Positions 14,368-26,242 of a DNA stretch of 64,000 nucleotides are shown here, in pieces; positions within the stretch are counted from its first letter, which is position 1; every line of letters starts with the position of its first letter. A program made the translations under genes and the position numbers. A model generated the notes under the pieces. That model saw nothing but the letters and a program-made list of their open reading frames with translations, did no database searches and had not been told where the DNA came from. Origin of the DNA: Candidatus Jettenia caeni (GTDB taxonomy: Bacteria; Planctomycetota; Brocadiia; Brocadiales; Brocadiaceae); contig BAFH01000001.1 of NCBI GenBank assembly GCA_000296795.1, positions 388 to 64,387 on the forward strand, written 5' to 3'.

Positions 14368-15351
14368 CTAGGACATTCGCTGCGCCATGAAAGATGCAAT
14401 TTCTTTAAATACTGTTTTGTTTTCAACAGGAATCTCATCAATAGTCTTATAAGCCTGTTTTACGAGATCTTCCGCATAATCCTGAGCATATTGTATAGCA
14501 TGATATTTTTTGTATATATCCAGCACCCATTTTATATCGTTATCGGTTGTTTCATCTCTGGGTTTTAACATAATATCGCGCAAGCATTTTTTATCATCCG
14601 TACAAGCAACTTGCAATGTATAGGAATATAAAAAGCTTGCCTTGCCTTCTTTCACATCGGAGCCGATCACCCCTCCCCGTCCCTTTCCATGAGTCATATC
14701 AATGAGATCATCACGGATTTGAAACGCTGGTCCCATTGTCTTCCCCAACATCCATATCTTTTCAACAACCTCTTCTGAAGCACCCGATACTATAGCCCCG
14801 CCGACCATACCACAAGCAAGATAATACCCCGTCTTAAGCTCGACCATTTGCATGTAGTTATCGACCGAAAAATCCTCCGATGCCCTTGCGCCAATATCTA
14901 TTGCCTGGCCCTCGACCGTTTTCCCATAAGTCAACGTGAGCACCTGTAATAATTTTATCTTTTTTTCCAACGATACGGAACTCGCCAGGATGCTTTTATA
15001 CGCGCAGGCGAGAAGATAATCTCCTGCGTTTATCGCATGAGCTATACCGTATTTCATCCACACGGTAGGCTGATCGCGCCGTATCGTATCCCCGTCTTCA
15101 ATATCATCGTGCATAAGAAACATATTATGCATAGCCTCGACGGCAAGAGCAAAGGGTATTGCATCTTTTGTATTTCCCCCCAATGCCTCACAGGTAATTA
15201 AGCATATGGCAGGTCTCACCCTTTTCCCTCCTGTGTACAGGTGATGCCATATAGGCTCGCTTAAATAATTTTTTTTATGAGGGGGTATTAACTCCTGTAA
15301 TAATTGGTCTATTTTCGCACCATAGGTTTTAATTGATTCATCGATCGGCAT
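14368..15351 (-). CDS. polyprenyl diphosphate synthase (trans-type, IspA/IspB family)
   Basis: This protein condenses isopentenyl diphosphate with allylic diphosphates to make a linear prenyl chain. Both aspartate-rich motifs are present: FARM as HDDIEDGDTIRR and SARM as QIRDDLIDM, as are GKRVRPAICL and the KTGY segment. I set the start at 15351 (MPIDESIK) because an AAAGGA ribosome-binding site lies 7 bp upstream; an ATG eight codons earlier has none. Residues before FARM include MFLMHDD, without an obvious bulky stop, so chain length (C15, C20 or longer) is uncertain. The product could supply the carrier lipid or quinone side chain. Confidence 0.9.
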   Translation of the reverse strand: MPIDESIKTYGAKIDQLLQELIPPHKKNYLSEPIWHHLYTGGKRVRPAICLITCEALGGNTKDAIPFALAVEAMHNMFLMHDDIEDGDTIRRDQPTVWMKYGIAHAINAGDYLLACAYKSILASSVSLEKKIKLLQVLTLTYGKTVEGQAIDIGARASEDFSVDNYMQMVELKTGYYLACGMVGGAIVSGASEEVVEKIWMLGKTMGPAFQIRDDLIDMTHGKGRGGVIGSDVKEGKASFLYSYTLQVACTDDKKCLRDIMLKPRDETTDNDIKWVLDIYKKYHAIQYAQDYAEDLVKQAYKTIDEIPVENKTVFKEIASFMAQRMS

Positions 15352-15444
15352 CTCTGATCCTTTTCCAAAGCACATAAGCCTATAAAAAGATTAAGAATAA
15401 GACAAGACTGCAGAAGTAAATTTGAGAAAACTACGATACAAAAT

Positions 15445-18997: not shown

Positions 18998-19402
18998 AGC
19001 CGCCCTTTTTCATATAGAATATTCTCTAAATAACCCTTCTCTCTTTCCTGCAAATCTTAAGTATTTTGCAACTTTATTATAGAAGAACAGTCAATGGTAT
19101 AGCAAGGAAAAACCCCCTCAGAGAATAATACTTCTGGTAATATTAAAAGATTGACATCCCTAACCTTACCTGATAAAATTACGCTCGATTATGACGAGGA
19201 TTTATCCTCTCCTTTTACAAAGAGGAGTTAATAGAGAGGCACACCTTTCATAGATAGCAGTGCAAGCCAAAACCGGATTTTTAACGAGTGAAAAATACCT
19301 TCTCCCGATACATAATAATCTGGTTATTCCATACATATGTTGGCCCGGTTTATGGTAGAGAATTAATGCTTTTCCCAAAATCAAATTATCCGAGGTAAAA
19401 AA
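18998..19402. other. 405-bp divergent intergenic region between folD and ispH
   Basis: The region lies between two divergently transcribed genes and should contain both promoters, but I cannot point to convincing -35/-10 pairs. No gene or clear hairpin is seen. A GAGG ribosome-binding site near its right end (19392-19395) serves the TTG start of the ispH fusion. Confidence 0.5.
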
Positions 19403-21145
19403 TTGAGAGTAAAAGTCGCTAAAACTGCTGGGTTTTGTATGGGCGTCCGGAGGGCGATGGACACCCTTTTAGACGCTGCAAATGAAAAAAACGGTGATGG
19501 TAAGGTTTACACAGATGGACCCCTCATCCACAATCCGCAGGTACTCGAATATTTAGAAAAAAGAGGGATTCAAATTGTTAATGGGCAGACGGATCTCTCG
19601 AAGAGTACGGTTATTATAAGGGCGCATGGTATTACACCCGGCCGCAGAAAAGAGATCGAACAGACGGGCGCAAAGGTCTGTGATGCTACGTGTCCTCATG
19701 TAATGAGAGTCCAATCAATCATTAAAAAATATGCTGCACAGGGATATTCAACGGTAATCGTAGGGGATAAGGGGCATGCAGAGGTTATCGGTTTACTGGG
19801 GTATGCAGAAGGGAAAGGATACGTTATACAGGAATTAGAAGAAATTGAATATCTTCCGCCTATGGACAAGGTGTGCATTGTAGCCCAGACAACTCAGGAC
19901 AGACGGATGTTTAAAGAGGCGATAGACAGGCTCAAGAAACGTTATTCTCATTGTGAGTCATTTGAGACTATTTGCAGTTCCACGTATAAACGGCAAGACG
20001 AGGTTATCAACCTTACCAAATCTGTGGATGCCATGATTGTTGTTGGCGGAAGAGGAAGCGCCAATACCACACGGCTTGTTAAAATATGCGAGTCTCAGGG
20101 GACTCCGACAATTCATGTGGAAACTGATGCAGAGCTGGACCTCGATAAGCTGAAAGATTATGATACCGTCGGTGTAACGGCAGGCGCTTCAACCCCTAAC
20201 TGGATGATCAAAAGAGTCGTTGAAAAGGTGCATTCATATAAAGTCAACCGATATGAGAGATTCTTATTTGGCATAAAAAGTATTGCCAGTTTTTTTGTTG
20301 GAAGTTGTATCTTTGTAGGGCTTGGAGCTGCAAGTCTCAGTTACGCAAGCGCTGCTTTACTGGGAATTGAACCCAGATTACATTTTTGTCTGATTGCAGC
20401 GTTATTTATATTCTCCATGCAAGTCCTCAATCACTTCTCCAATAAAGAAGCCGTGGCGCTGAATGAGCCGGTAAGGGCGAAATTATACGAAAAAAAGCAG
20501 AATCTTTTCATCGGTCTTGGCATCGCCGGAGCAGTGGCATCTTTTGTTTTAGGATTCATCATCAGCAAACCCATTTTTTTTTGTATTTTCCTTGCCAGCC
20601 TCTTTGGCATTTTCTACCGGTTGGAAATAATACCAAAGAAACTATCCCGTATTATCAGGTACAGAAGTCTTGAACAAATACCTGGCTCAAAAGAGATTTT
20701 TTACGGGATTGCCTGGGGTGTCAGCACAGCCCTGATACCGTTTCTCGGGACGAGAAAAAGTTTTGTGCCGTCACTTTCCATCGCTATCGCATTTACCTTC
20801 AGCATCGCATTTATCAGAGCAGTTGTCCTTGATATACGGGATATCCAGGGTGACCGTATCCTGGGGAAAGAGACGATTCCCATTGCAATCGGAAAGGAAC
20901 GAACAAAGACGATTCTCATCATCATTACTGCATTAATAGCGATTTTGTTATCCGCAAGCCCGCTTCTTGGATGGACAACCAGCCTGGGATATTACTTACT
21001 ACCCTGTATTGCTTACGCTTACGGATATCAATATCTATTTTATAAACGTATTGTTTTCGAAGGGTTACTCCTTGAGACTATTGCAGATTTCAACTTTATC
21101 TTAGCTGGTATTATTGCTTTTCTATGGAAATCCAATTATCTTTAA
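19403..21145 (+). CDS. ispH: IspH - UbiA-type membrane prenyltransferase fusion
   Basis: This 580-residue protein has two parts. Residues 1 to about 282 are a full IspH (HMBPP reductase) with the three Fe-S cysteines (AGFCMGV, DATCPH, ETICSSTYKRQ) and substrate residues in GPLIHNP, IRAHGIT and GHAEVIG. It makes IPP and DMAPP. Residues about 300-580 form seven to nine membrane helices of UbiA type. The second Asp motif is intact (DIRDIQGDRILGKETIP). The first, normally NDxxDxxxD, reads NHFSNKEAVALNEP and has lost its aspartates. The start is TTG with a GAGG site 8 bp upstream. It is followed by DUF502 and tRNA-Sec. Whether the membrane half is an active prenyltransferase is open. Confidence 0.9.
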   Translation: MRVKVAKTAGFCMGVRRAMDTLLDAANEKNGDGKVYTDGPLIHNPQVLEYLEKRGIQIVNGQTDLSKSTVIIRAHGITPGRRKEIEQTGAKVCDATCPHVMRVQSIIKKYAAQGYSTVIVGDKGHAEVIGLLGYAEGKGYVIQELEEIEYLPPMDKVCIVAQTTQDRRMFKEAIDRLKKRYSHCESFETICSSTYKRQDEVINLTKSVDAMIVVGGRGSANTTRLVKICESQGTPTIHVETDAELDLDKLKDYDTVGVTAGASTPNWMIKRVVEKVHSYKVNRYERFLFGIKSIASFFVGSCIFVGLGAASLSYASAALLGIEPRLHFCLIAALFIFSMQVLNHFSNKEAVALNEPVRAKLYEKKQNLFIGLGIAGAVASFVLGFIISKPIFFCIFLASLFGIFYRLEIIPKKLSRIIRYRSLEQIPGSKEIFYGIAWGVSTALIPFLGTRKSFVPSLSIAIAFTFSIAFIRAVVLDIRDIQGDRILGKETIPIAIGKERTKTILIIITALIAILLSASPLLGWTTSLGYYLLPCIAYAYGYQYLFYKRIVFEGLLLETIADFNFILAGIIAFLWKSNYL

Positions 21146-21159
21146 CATATCAATAGATT

Positions 21160-21849
21160 ATGGAAGAAAAAACACAAGGGATATTCGCTCAATTTAAGAA
21201 AGATGTCAGGAAAAGGATGTTAACAGGATTACTGTTAATCCTGCCTGTGTATGTTACCTTCTTTGTTGTAAAATTTCTTTTCAGCTTTGTAGGAGGCACC
21301 CTTGCTCCGATCATAAAAAAAATATTACAATTTTACGGTGTTGCCTTGCCAAGAAGCTCTGTCGATGAATTTATTATTACATTTCTTGGGCTTATCCTTA
21401 CGTTTATATCATTATACTTTATCGGCATCTTTGCAGCTAATTTTGTCGGTAAAGCCATTATCAATTATTTTGAGAATCTGTTAACAAGAACTCCTGTCGT
21501 TCGAAATATATATTCATCAGTAAAACAGATAATTCACTCAATAAGCTTGCCTGGCAAACAAGCCTTTAAACGCGTAGTCCTTATAGATTTTCCGAAAGAA
21601 GGTACAAAATCAATCGGATTTGTTACCGGTGTTACAGAATATAACCACGGGAAAAAACTTATAAACGTGTTTATTCCAACGACTCCAAATCCGACAACAG
21701 GATTTTTGATATATACCACGGAAGACTTAGTTACCGATACCAACCTTAGCGTAGAAGAGGCGTTCAAAGCGCTCTTCTCAGGAGGTGTCCTGACACCTCC
21801 TGACATAACATCGGCATTTAGAAAAGCGGATACTCAGAATAAAGGTTAA
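21160..21849 (+). CDS. DUF502 family membrane protein
   Basis: This 229-residue protein has two hydrophobic helices near residues 20-45 and 65-95 and a conserved soluble C-terminal half (TPVVRNIYSSVKQ, RVVLIDFPKEGTKSIGFVTG, VFIPTTPNPTTGFL), which define DUF502. Function is unknown; family members are widespread inner-membrane proteins. It starts 14 bp after the ispH-ubiA fusion and ends 15 bp before the selenocysteine tRNA, so all three are probably on one transcript. Confidence 0.88.
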   Translation: MEEKTQGIFAQFKKDVRKRMLTGLLLILPVYVTFFVVKFLFSFVGGTLAPIIKKILQFYGVALPRSSVDEFIITFLGLILTFISLYFIGIFAANFVGKAIINYFENLLTRTPVVRNIYSSVKQIIHSISLPGKQAFKRVVLIDFPKEGTKSIGFVTGVTEYNHGKKLINVFIPTTPNPTTGFLIYTTEDLVTDTNLSVEEAFKALFSGGVLTPPDITSAFRKADTQNKG

Positions 21850-21864
21850 ATGAATTCTTTTCAC

Positions 21865-21961
21865 GGGAGTGCATGTCGGCTGGTGTCGGCGACGGACTTC
21901 AAATCCGGTCTGTCCCGCTTTTAGCGGGATAGGTGGGTTCGATTCCCACACGCTCCCGCCA
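21865..21961 (+). tRNA. selC: selenocysteine tRNA (UCA anticodon)
   Basis: The 97-nt sequence folds as a tRNA-Sec. It has a long acceptor (GGGAGTG with CGCTCCC, then discriminator G and encoded CCA). The D-stem has 6 bp and a 4-base loop (GTCGGC-TGGT-GTCGGC), a hallmark of bacterial tRNA-Sec. The anticodon loop is CTTCAAA with anticodon TCA. The variable arm is long (CCCGC / GCGGG) and the T-arm is GTGGG-TTCGATT-CCCAC. The anticodon reads UGA, so the cell should also carry selA, selB, selD and at least one selenoprotein; none of these is in the window. Confidence 0.95.
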
Positions 21962-24544: not shown

Positions 24545-24818
24545 AGCAAAGGGGGGAATAGAGAGATTAGCAAAGGGGAGAATAGAGAGAAGTTTTCATT
24601 GACACCAATGAAGTAATGAGACAATGGGAGAATAGAGAGATTGGCAAAGAAGGAGACCGAGAGATTTGTAAAGGAAGAGACGGAGAGGCTTGCAAAAGAG
24701 AGGACGGAGGAGTTTGTAAAGGGAGAGATGGAGAGATTAAGAAAGGGGAGAACTGAAGGATTAATAAAGGGGTGTCCAGGAGAATTAGTAAAGGGAGATG
24801 GTGAGGATTTGGGGAGGA
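24545..24818 (+). repeat. tandem 24-bp repeat entering a coding region
   Basis: About nine degenerate copies of a 24-bp purine-rich unit (consensus close to GAGAGATTAGTAAAGGGAGA plus four bases) run from the intergenic region into the Mur-ligase reading frame. The first copies resemble the intergenic 'TTAGCAAAGGGGGGAATAGA' element just upstream (24542-24561). Later copies are in frame and would encode an 8-residue repeat (ERFVKEET, ERLAKERT, EEFVKGEM, ERLRKGRT). Confidence 0.75.
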
Positions 24819-26242
24819 ATTTAGCGTTATTCTCATATCACTTTGTTGGCGTGGGTGGCATTGGCATGAGCGCCATCGCTCAGGTACTGAAGGAACAAGG
24901 CCACACGGTTAGTGGTTCCGATAGAAATTATGACAAACACATTACCCCTTATGTATTTTCCAAACTCCTGTCTCAAGGCATTTCACTCCACCCTCAGGAC
25001 GGTTCGGGTGTTAACGAAAACACACATTTTATCGTTATCTCTTCCGCCATCGAAGAAGAGAATCCGGATATTAAAAAAGCCCGGCTGCTTAACAAAAAGA
25101 TTATAAAACGCGCTAACCTCCTGGCTGAGATATTTAACCATAAATATGGAATTGCTATCGGAGGAACAAATGGAAAGACTACCGTAAGTTCTATGGTCAG
25201 CTATATCCTTGATTATGCCAACCTGTCCCCTACTATTATTATAGGTGGATGTATCAAAAACTATGTTGATAAAGTCCATTTAGGTAATGCAAAAACGGGC
25301 ACATCAGACATCATTGCCATAGAGGCCGATGAGAGTGATGGCAGTATCGTCTCTTATACACCACAAACATCCGTCATTACGAATGTGTCTAAAGACCACA
25401 ATACTATCGAAGAGATATCGAAGATGTTTGTAACCCTTTCGGAAAATACCAGGAAACTGCTCATTCTCAATGCCGATTGTCCTCATTTGAGAACGATACA
25501 TTTTAAGCATAAAAACATCGTTACCTATGGGTTACATAATGGCGCTGCTCTAAGCGCAAAAAATATAACTTATAAACCATTCCAAACCTTGTTTGATGTA
25601 AATGGTCAGTCTTTTGAGATACATCTTCCCGGTTCTTATAACGTATCAAACGCACTTGCAGCTATTGCCGTTGCCAGAAGTCTGAATATCCCCGATAGTA
25701 AAACATCTGTAGCGCTCAAACAATTCAGGGGTATACAGCGCAGGATGGATAGTATCGGAGAGGTTCATGGAATAAGGGTGATAGACGATTATGCCCACAA
25801 TCCGGAAAAAGTTAAGGCAGCAATACAGGCAGTAAAATTACACTATAAGCGTATTATCGCTATCTTTCAACCTCACGGTTACGGCCCTGCCAATTTTATG
25901 AAGGAAGAACTCGTAGAAGCCTTTGTTACCGCCCTCTCCTCTCAGGATATTCTCTTTATGCCGGAGATATATTATGCTGGCGGCACTGCCAGCAAAAATA
26001 TCTCTTCTGCTGATATTATTCAGCAGGTAAGCAAAGCCGGTAAAAAAGCCTTTTTTATTGAAAAAAGAGACGATATTATACCAATAATTGAAGGACAGAC
26101 CCATGAGGGTGATTGTATCCTTGTCATGGGAGCAAGAGACTATACCCTTACTGAATTTTGCGAAAAAATCCTGCAGGGTTTGATACAGAAAAAGATGCTG
26201 AAGAATTATAGCATCCAGGAGATGAAACAGAACAGAATATGA
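24641..26242 (+). CDS. murC: MurC-type UDP-N-acetylmuramate ligase
   Basis: The catalytic part is a Mur ligase: GVGGIGMSAIAQVL (N-terminal nucleotide-sugar fold), GSDRN, the P-loop IGGTNGKTTVSSM (usually GTHGKTTT), the carbamylated-lysine region EADESDGS, and DDYAHNPEKVKAAI in the C-terminal domain. It would add L-alanine to UDP-MurNAc, although DYAHNP and GTNGKT are variants that leave room for a MurC-like paralogue. The frame opens with TTG at 24641 and first encodes about 55 residues of an 8-residue KE-rich repeat. A more orthodox start would be the TTG at 24809, directly before the ligase fold. The start is therefore uncertain. Confidence 0.85.
   Translation: MAKKETERFVKEETERLAKERTEEFVKGEMERLRKGRTEGLIKGCPGELVKGDGEDLGRNLALFSYHFVGVGGIGMSAIAQVLKEQGHTVSGSDRNYDKHITPYVFSKLLSQGISLHPQDGSGVNENTHFIVISSAIEEENPDIKKARLLNKKIIKRANLLAEIFNHKYGIAIGGTNGKTTVSSMVSYILDYANLSPTIIIGGCIKNYVDKVHLGNAKTGTSDIIAIEADESDGSIVSYTPQTSVITNVSKDHNTIEEISKMFVTLSENTRKLLILNADCPHLRTIHFKHKNIVTYGLHNGAALSAKNITYKPFQTLFDVNGQSFEIHLPGSYNVSNALAAIAVARSLNIPDSKTSVALKQFRGIQRRMDSIGEVHGIRVIDDYAHNPEKVKAAIQAVKLHYKRIIAIFQPHGYGPANFMKEELVEAFVTALSSQDILFMPEIYYAGGTASKNISSADIIQQVSKAGKKAFFIEKRDDIIPIIEGQTHEGDCILVMGARDYTLTEFCEKILQGLIQKKMLKNYSIQEMKQNRI

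What the first reader, a model, noticed from the sequence alone, without database searches (positions are those of the whole stretch)
19403..21145. IspH fused to a UbiA-type membrane domain that has lost its first aspartate motif
Seen: one uninterrupted frame with a complete IspH, followed by a polytopic UbiA-like half with an intact second motif (DIRDIQGD) but NHFSNKEAV in place of NDxxDxxxD. Known: UbiA enzymes need both aspartate motifs for Mg-diphosphate binding. Inference: the membrane half may have a changed role, such as a prenyl-diphosphate binding module, membrane anchor or non-canonical transferase that receives the IspH product directly.
Basis: partly seen in the sequence, partly recalled or inferred. 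Interest (0 to 1): 0.65.

Follow-up and report, generated by a model that had tools for sequence, protein, structure and literature searches.

The report
IspH fused to altered UbiA membrane domain
In anammox bacteria and many other Planctomycetota the last enzyme that makes isoprenoid building blocks is permanently joined to a membrane domain shaped like a prenyltransferase, and that domain has kept half of its catalytic site under strong selection while the other half has worn away; the fusion itself was already known from sulfate reducers.

Summary
Window 19403-21145 (+) is one 580-codon gene of a Candidatus Jettenia genome: an IspH with its expected active-site residues, and the only IspH in the genome, joined to a UbiA-fold membrane half. 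It is not a sequencing artefact: 69 of 392 sampled Planctomycetota genomes carry the same fusion, and no strong stand-alone relative of the membrane half was found. IspH-UbiA fusions were published in 2015 (Rao et al., PMC4746011) from sulfate reducers, with both aspartate motifs said to be present; planctomycetes were not named. What is new is the pattern of loss. The asparagine of motif 1 stays (N343 = AfUbiA N68), but the aspartates equivalent to D72 and D76 are gone or drifting (columns ranked 184th and 280th of 287 by conservation). Y405 (= Y139), D480 (= D198), D484 (= D202), W438 and D562 are among the twelve most conserved columns. The membrane half evolves as slowly as the ordinary UbiA enzyme of the same genomes. 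A fusion on an IMG/VR contig has lost nearly every site residue yet keeps the fold. Best reading: a functional IspH tethered to a non-canonical UbiA module that probably binds an isoprenoid ligand and is not an ordinary prenyltransferase. Its function is untested.

The parts
19403..21145 (+). ispH-ubiA fusion gene, 580 aa, TTG start; the only IspH gene of the genome
   Evidence: ORF and translation; only PF02401 match in the genome; same fusion in 69 of 392 Planctomycetota genomes
19392..19395 (+). GAGG ribosome-binding-site-like sequence, 7 bases before the TTG start
   Evidence: read directly
19151..19179 (+). promoter-like site TTGACA-17-TAAAAT with TG before the second hexamer (consensus match only)
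19409..20230 (+). IspH half, residues 3-276; the known IspH active-site positions are conserved (C12, H43, H75, C97, H125, E127, C191, S219, N221, S263)
   Evidence: Pfam LYTB 314.6 bits; invariant columns; Z 33 to E. coli IspH; the naming of active-site residues rests on established IspH knowledge
20270..21130 (+). UbiA-fold membrane half, residues 290-576
   Evidence: Pfam UbiA; ApUbiA 4od4 Z 19.6, 252 residues aligned
20429..20455 (+). first motif, residues 343-351 NHFSNKEAV; N343 kept, D5 replaced by N347, D9 by V351
20615..20617 (+). Y405, equivalent of the catalytic tyrosine Y139 of AfUbiA
   Evidence: alignment; (76 of 81 Tyr)
20681..20695 (+). PGSKE (427-431), conserved loop before the next helix, part of the family signature R-x-L-K-D-I-P-x-S-K
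20714..20716 (+). W438, fifth most conserved column of the half
20831..20854 (+). second motif, residues 477-484 DIRDIQGD; D480 and D484 = AfUbiA D198 and D202; D484 invariant in all 81 aligned planctomycete fusions
21086..21088 (+). D562 in the last membrane helix, conserved in 80 of 81 fused sequences
21160..21849 (+). DUF502 membrane protein gene, 14 bases downstream; the same gene follows the fusion in 20 Brocadiales loci but in no distant locus

Best explanation
The gene makes a membrane-bound form of the cell's only IspH. The N-terminal half is a working HMBPP reductase that supplies all IPP and DMAPP (inferred from intact active-site residues and from being the only copy). The C-terminal half is a complete UbiA-fold membrane domain that no longer has the standard two-site magnesium-diphosphate centre. 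It keeps the asparagine of motif 1, the catalytic tyrosine, both aspartates of motif 2 and a conserved aspartate in the last helix, but has lost the motif 1 aspartates that hold the first magnesium. I infer that it is not an ordinary prenyltransferase. It most likely acts in cis on IspH as a membrane tether that also binds an isoprenoid or other small ligand, either to localise and channel IPP/DMAPP or to sense product. Shown here: the fusion, its distribution, the fold, the pattern of conservation. Inferred: ligand binding, tethering, and any effect on IspH.
For: (1) Only IspH in the genome, with the active-site positions invariant in 61 aligned fusions. (2) The membrane half occurs only fused: all strong profile hits in 392 genomes (69 genomes) lie in IspH frames or are cut by contig ends or frameshifts; the best stand-alone relative scores 108 bits, against 175 or more for all but one fused protein. 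A partner that never travels alone argues for a role on IspH and not for a separate pathway step. (3) All 43 fused IspHs in the tree plus six unfused ones form one clade (SH-aLRT 92.9, bootstrap 97), consistent with one origin and a few later losses of the membrane half. (4) Conservation ranks of the 287 columns: D484 1st, D562 3rd, W438 5th, Y405 7th, N343 9th, D477 11th, D480 12th; position 347 is 184th and 351 is 280th. (5) The half is as constrained as the ordinary UbiA of the same genomes (83/77/51/49/57/57% against 76/74/55/55/58/57% identity), so it is doing something. (6) Complete UbiA fold, Z 19.6 to ApUbiA. (7) An ordinary UbiA exists in 14 of 15 Brocadiales genomes searched, so the fused half need not make the quinone. 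(8) Fusion L187 has lost almost all site residues, is not recognised by Pfam UbiA, yet keeps the UbiA fold.
Against: No biochemistry exists for this half; Rao et al. could not express full-length fusions (PMC4746011). D to N at position 347 can still leave a metal ligand, so loss of catalysis is not proved. N343, Y405, D480 and D484 being kept is also what a modified enzyme would show. L187 is one lineage of unknown host. Desulfobacterota sequences, reported to keep two DxxxD repeats, could not be reached. Coordinates of the models were not available, so pocket geometry was not inspected.
Confidence: 0.5

Rival explanations
1. The membrane half is an active but non-canonical UbiA-type enzyme. 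It ionises a prenyl diphosphate using mainly the three-aspartate second motif and then transfers, cyclises or isomerises it; IspH feeds it DMAPP or IPP.
For: Motif 2 DxxDxxxD (D477, D480, D484) has the spacing of UbiA-type terpene synthases (QDxxDxxxD), which also have a degenerate motif 1 NxxxG/AxxxD (PMC9835599). N343, Y405, D480 and D484 are kept. Constraint equals that of an ordinary UbiA.
Against: The fungal enzymes keep the last aspartate of motif 1, and a D100A mutant of Tps1A abolished product (that D100 is this residue is my reading). The Brocadiales fusions have lost it, and D477 is G or A in 11 of 81. The half is never found stand-alone. Some fused lineages have P at position 347, and L187 retains only Y and the last D.
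Confidence: 0.27
2. The membrane half is only an anchor that places IspH at the membrane, for example near its electron donor or polyprenyl synthases; its former active site is a relic.
For: Rao et al. proposed membrane localisation (PMC4746011). L187 has lost nearly all site residues but keeps the fold. A few species in the fused clade have lost the half.
Against: In planctomycetes the site residues are the best-conserved columns of the half and the half evolves at the rate of an active UbiA; a pure anchor predicts hydrophobicity only.
Confidence: 0.15
3. It is an ordinary prenyltransferase whose motif 1 tolerates N for D.
For: A few Scalindua fusions have D at 347 (NHFAD), and 15 of 30 distant fusions have D or E there.
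Against: AfUbiA D72A abolishes GPP binding and the EcMenA equivalent loses function (PMC4106721). Position 351 is hydrophobic in all Brocadiales fusions aligned, and nine distant sequences have P at 347.
Confidence: 0.06
4. The frame is an artefact that joins two neighbouring genes.
For: None found.
Against: Same frame in 69 of 392 genomes, including complete ones, down to 25% identity.
Confidence: 0.01

Closest known systems
IspH-UbiA fusion ('Rosetta stone' protein) of sulfate-reducing bacteria, Rao et al. 2015 (PMC4746011)
   Same: Same order IspH then UbiA-like membrane domain, similar length, organism has another UbiA/MenA, function of the membrane half unknown (called PT_UbiA_5).
   Different: Reported from sulfate reducers with two DxxxD repeats present; planctomycetes not named. 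The planctomycete fusions have an eroded motif 1.
AfUbiA and ApUbiA, archaeal UbiA homologues with solved structures (4TQ3, 4OD5)
   Same: Fold (Z 18-20), N68, Y139, D198 and D202 equivalents.
   Different: D72 and D76 equivalents missing; fused to IspH; conserved PGSKE loop and D562.
MqnP/UbiA-like enzyme of the same genome (L001)
   Same: Same superfamily, motif 1 register and NP(R) following it.
   Different: L001 has NRLIDTKYD with both aspartates, is not fused, and gives 181 bits to Pfam UbiA against 58-60.
UbiA-type terpene synthases (Tps1A, EriG, Fma-TC)
   Same: Degenerate motif 1 and a three-aspartate motif 2 with the same spacing (PMC9835599).
   Different: Fungal, not fused, keep the last aspartate of motif 1.
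UBIAD1-HMGCR pair of animals
   Same: A UbiA-fold protein physically coupled to an isoprenoid-pathway reductase; UBIAD1 is described as a GGPP sensor (PMC9579336). L187's membrane half matches UBIAD1 in 8djk, Z 15.0.
   Different: Non-covalent complex, mevalonate pathway, unrelated reductase, UBIAD1 keeps its catalytic motifs. An analogy, not a relationship.
IspH-RPS1 fusions of Firmicutes
   Same: IspH with a C-terminal fusion partner.
   Different: Partner is ribosomal protein S1 repeats, soluble.

Membership tests
IspH (LytB, HMBPP reductase) | Pfam LYTB over its whole length with the three cluster cysteines and the catalytic H/E/T/S/N residues | tested here: met
   314.6 bits, residues 3-276; C12, C97, C191, H43, H75, H125, E127, T164, S219, N221, S263 invariant in 61 fusions
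IspH (LytB, HMBPP reductase) | Reduces HMBPP to IPP and DMAPP | not testable with these tools
   only IspH in the genome, so activity is expected
UbiA superfamily (fold) | UbiA membrane-helix fold and Pfam UbiA match over the gathering score | tested here: met
   57.8 bits against 34.2; Z 19.6 to 4od4 over 252 residues; all 61 aligned fusions match Pfam UbiA at E 0.001
UbiA prenyltransferase (active) | First motif N-x-x-x-D-x-x-x-D | tested here: not met
   N343 kept; D5 is N347, D9 is V351; columns 347 and 351 unconserved in the family
UbiA prenyltransferase (active) | Second motif DxxxD (AfUbiA D198, D202) | tested here: met
   D480 and D484; D484 invariant in 81, D480 in 76 of 81
UbiA prenyltransferase (active) | Conserved catalytic tyrosine (AfUbiA Y139) | tested here: met
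   Y405, 76 of 81
UbiA prenyltransferase (active) | Basic diphosphate ligands R22 and K146 of AfUbiA | tested here: inconclusive
   alignment of these loops is not reliable; K430 is K or R in 79 of 81 but its equivalence is unknown
UbiA prenyltransferase (active) | Mg-dependent prenyl transfer | not testable with these tools
   needs an assay
IspH-UbiA fusion of Rao et al. 2015 | IspH with C-terminal UbiA-like domain in one frame | tested here: met
IspH-UbiA fusion of Rao et al. 2015 | Two DxxxD repeats in the UbiA half | tested here: not met
UbiA-type terpene synthase | NxxxG/AxxxD and QDxxDxxxD | tested here: not met
   motif 2 is LDxxDxxxD (spacing matches) but motif 1 lacks the final D

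The most novel reading that the evidence does not exclude
The UbiA half is a pseudo-prenyltransferase that works as a built-in isoprenoid sensor or channelling module for the last step of the MEP pathway, a bacterial and covalent counterpart of the UBIAD1-HMGCR pair. It binds a prenyl diphosphate or prenyl lipid through N343, Y405, D480, D484 and D562 and adjusts or positions IspH.
Probability: 0.15. Interest if true: 0.75.

Novelty: new variant of a known kind. Interest (0 to 1): 0.42.

Why it matters
IspH is essential in most bacteria and is a drug target, yet nobody knows why some lineages tie it to a prenyltransferase-like membrane domain. The pattern found here makes the question testable: one clade, obligate fusion, one metal site eroded while the rest of the pocket is held fixed. 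Four residues (N343, Y405, D484, D562) can separate anchor, sensor and enzyme. It would also warn annotators not to call these proteins prenyltransferases on the strength of the Pfam match.

Tried and rejected
Assembly artefact: rejected, the joined frame is in many genomes. Shifted register of motif 1, suggested by YNLDRLVD in the stand-alone relative L120: considered and set aside, because the profile alignment and the following NEP-R / NPR match fix N343 on N1. Gene neighbourhood as a functional clue: uninformative; DUF502 follows in Brocadiales only, and an RNase HII-like gene (my reading, no family search run) follows the fusion in one distant subgroup. The long N-terminal extension of the L084 frame (1193 codons) looked like read-through of a G+C-rich frame and was ignored. 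Plasmid records: no fusion, and no match to the UbiA half. Model coordinates were not exposed, so pocket geometry could not be measured.

Full report
WHAT IS THERE. Window 19403-21145 (+) is a single 580-codon gene with a TTG start seven bases behind GAGG. Pfam gives LYTB (IspH) at residues 3-276, 314.6 bits, and UbiA at 311-549, 57.8 bits against a cut-off of 34.2. The window lies in a 4.09 Mb genome in four contigs; its closest named relative in the collection is Candidatus Jettenia ecosi, 98% identical in the UbiA half, so this is an anammox bacterium. It is the only IspH gene of the genome.

NOT AN ARTEFACT. Among 392 Planctomycetota genomes the full-length fusion was found from 98% down to below 30% identity. 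A profile of the UbiA half alone (A2) hits 84 genomes at 1e-12; by my count 69 are fused (33 Brocadiales, one other member of the class, 35 others) and 15 are weak stand-alone proteins. All but one of the fused hits score 175 bits or more; the exception is a 558-codon frame with 80 bits (G208). The best stand-alone protein scores 108. The apparent stand-alone hit G145 sits at a contig end and its IspH at another. In the phylum sample no Brocadiales genome has an unfused IspH: the three without a fusion (G258, G366, G292) gave no IspH match at all.

ONE ORIGIN. In a tree of IspH domains, 43 fused proteins and six unfused planctomycete proteins form one clade with SH-aLRT 92.9 and bootstrap 97; the other unfused planctomycete proteins lie outside. 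The unfused members carry no trace of the UbiA half nearby. This fits one fusion event and a few later losses; branches inside the clade are partly weak.

THE MOTIFS. The register was checked in two independent ways. Profile-profile alignment with ordinary UbiA proteins of Brocadiales pairs LNHFSNKEAVALNEP with FNRLIDTKYDVHNPR. The profile-to-PDB alignment pairs D480 and D484 with D198 and D202 of AfUbiA and Y405 with Y139. So N343 = N68, N347 = D72, V351 = D76. Huang et al. 2014 (PMC4106721) report that N68, D72, D198 and D202 coordinate two magnesium ions, that alanine at N68, D72, R22 or K146 abolishes GPP binding, that D198A and D202A raise KD 45- and 21-fold, and that Y139 is present in 97% of the family. 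Measured against that list the fusion keeps N68, Y139, D198 and D202 and lacks D72 and D76; R22 and K146 could not be judged.

THE PATTERN OF LOSS. In 81 fused sequences position 343 is N in 77, 405 is Y in 76, 480 is D in 76, 484 is D in all 81, 562 is D in 80 and 438 is W in 79. Position 347 is N in most Brocadiales and E, P, D or another residue elsewhere; 351 is V, A or I in Brocadiales and mixed elsewhere. Ranked by entropy over 287 columns in a thinned set, 484 is 1st, 562 3rd, 438 5th, 405 7th, 343 9th, 477 11th, 480 12th, 347 184th and 351 280th. Parsimony on the IspH tree puts an acidic residue at 347 in the ancestor with five changes since. One half of the metal site has therefore drifted while the rest of the pocket stayed fixed.

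CONSTRAINT. Between Jettenia and six other Brocadiales genomes the fused UbiA half is 83, 77, 51, 49, 57 and 57% identical; the ordinary UbiA of the same genomes is 76, 74, 55, 55, 58 and 57% identical; the IspH half is 92-66%. The fused half is under as much constraint as a normal enzyme.

FOLD. AlphaFold2 with 61 sequences gave mean pLDDT 85.6, with low confidence in the loops after both motifs. The membrane half aligns to ApUbiA 4od4 with Z 19.6, rmsd 3.0 over 252 residues, and to AfUbiA 4tq4 with Z 18.5 over 259. Soluble prenyl synthases, which are also helical, follow at Z 14-16, so the top UbiA matches stand only a few units above them; the sequence match to Pfam UbiA settles the family.

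A FURTHER-DECAYED RELATIVE. A scan of IMG/VR found L187, an IspH fusion of 544 aa on a contig with RadC, TadA and a probable cytochrome; the host is unknown. Profile alignment to the planctomycete fusions covers 506 residues at probability 100. Its membrane half is not recognised by Pfam UbiA. In the residue alignment only Y405 and D484 equivalents remain, while 480, 562, 438 and 430 are replaced; by the other alignment the motif 1 asparagine may also be kept. Its model (pLDDT 87.5) still matches UBIAD1 (8djk, Z 15.0) and ApUbiA (Z 14.2) over the whole half. In at least one lineage the fused UbiA fold therefore outlives nearly the whole catalytic site.

SURROUNDINGS. DUF502 follows the fusion in 20 Brocadiales loci but not in distant groups; an RNase HII-like gene follows it in one distant subgroup. 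A polyprenyl synthetase gene lies 4 kb upstream on the other strand (window 14368-15375), one of two in the genome. None of this points to a specific product. Of 15 Brocadiales genomes searched, 14 also have an ordinary UbiA, so the fused half is not needed to make the quinone.

WHAT IS KNOWN. Rao et al. 2015 (PMC4746011) described 47 IspH-UbiA fusions, all or nearly all in sulfate reducers, stated that two DxxxD repeats are present, proposed prenyltransferase activity and membrane localisation, and failed to express them intact. The only other paper found by name cites that one. The fusion is therefore not new. New here are the planctomycete clade including all anammox genera sampled, the eroded first site with retained N343/Y405/D480/D484/D562, the obligate linkage, and L187.

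HOW IT MOST LIKELY WORKS. IspH makes IPP and DMAPP at the membrane surface. The UbiA half holds it there and, in planctomycetes, very likely still binds a ligand in its pocket. Without D72 and D76 equivalents ordinary transfer is unlikely. The obligate linkage suggests that the ligand matters to IspH, as a sensor or as part of a channel. A non-canonical enzyme is the main rival: UbiA-type terpene synthases also have a weak first motif and a three-aspartate second motif (PMC9835599), but they keep the last aspartate of motif 1. The UBIAD1-HMGCR pair, where a UbiA-fold protein senses GGPP for an isoprenoid-pathway reductase (PMC9579336), is an analogy that makes the sensor reading testable; it is not evidence for it.

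LIMITS. No assay; no coordinates of the models; Desulfobacterota not reached; conservation counts include related sequences; many of the distant genomes are draft metagenome assemblies; L187 is one lineage.

Noticed in passing
window 21865-21961 (+): A selenocysteine tRNA gene directly after the DUF502 gene (ARAGORN and Rfam RF01852), so this anammox genome may make selenoproteins.
   Followed up: no
window 24641-26242 (+): A Mur ligase (MurC/Mpl type) whose ORF begins with a repetitive K/E-rich stretch of about 60 residues before the Mur_ligase domain (residue 66 on); it may be a real extension or a wrong start.
   Followed up: no
L075 5131-6875: The Scalindua rubra IspH-UbiA copy is split over two overlapping frames, a frameshift or assembly error.
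   Followed up: no
L120 1406-2500 (-) and L121 790-1935 (+): Stand-alone UbiA-like proteins with YNLDRLVD / YILDRGID in place of motif 1, a K(D/E)xP loop like the fused family and an aspartate near the last helix; they may belong to a wider uncharacterised UbiA subfamily.
   Followed up: partly
window 14368-15375 (-): Polyprenyl synthetase gene near the fusion, one of two in the genome; the local gene order recurs in some relatives.
   Followed up: partly
L187 1049-2683 (+): IspH fusion with an almost fully decayed UbiA half on an IMG/VR contig that looks like host DNA of unknown origin (RadC, TadA, c-type haem motif).
   Followed up: partly
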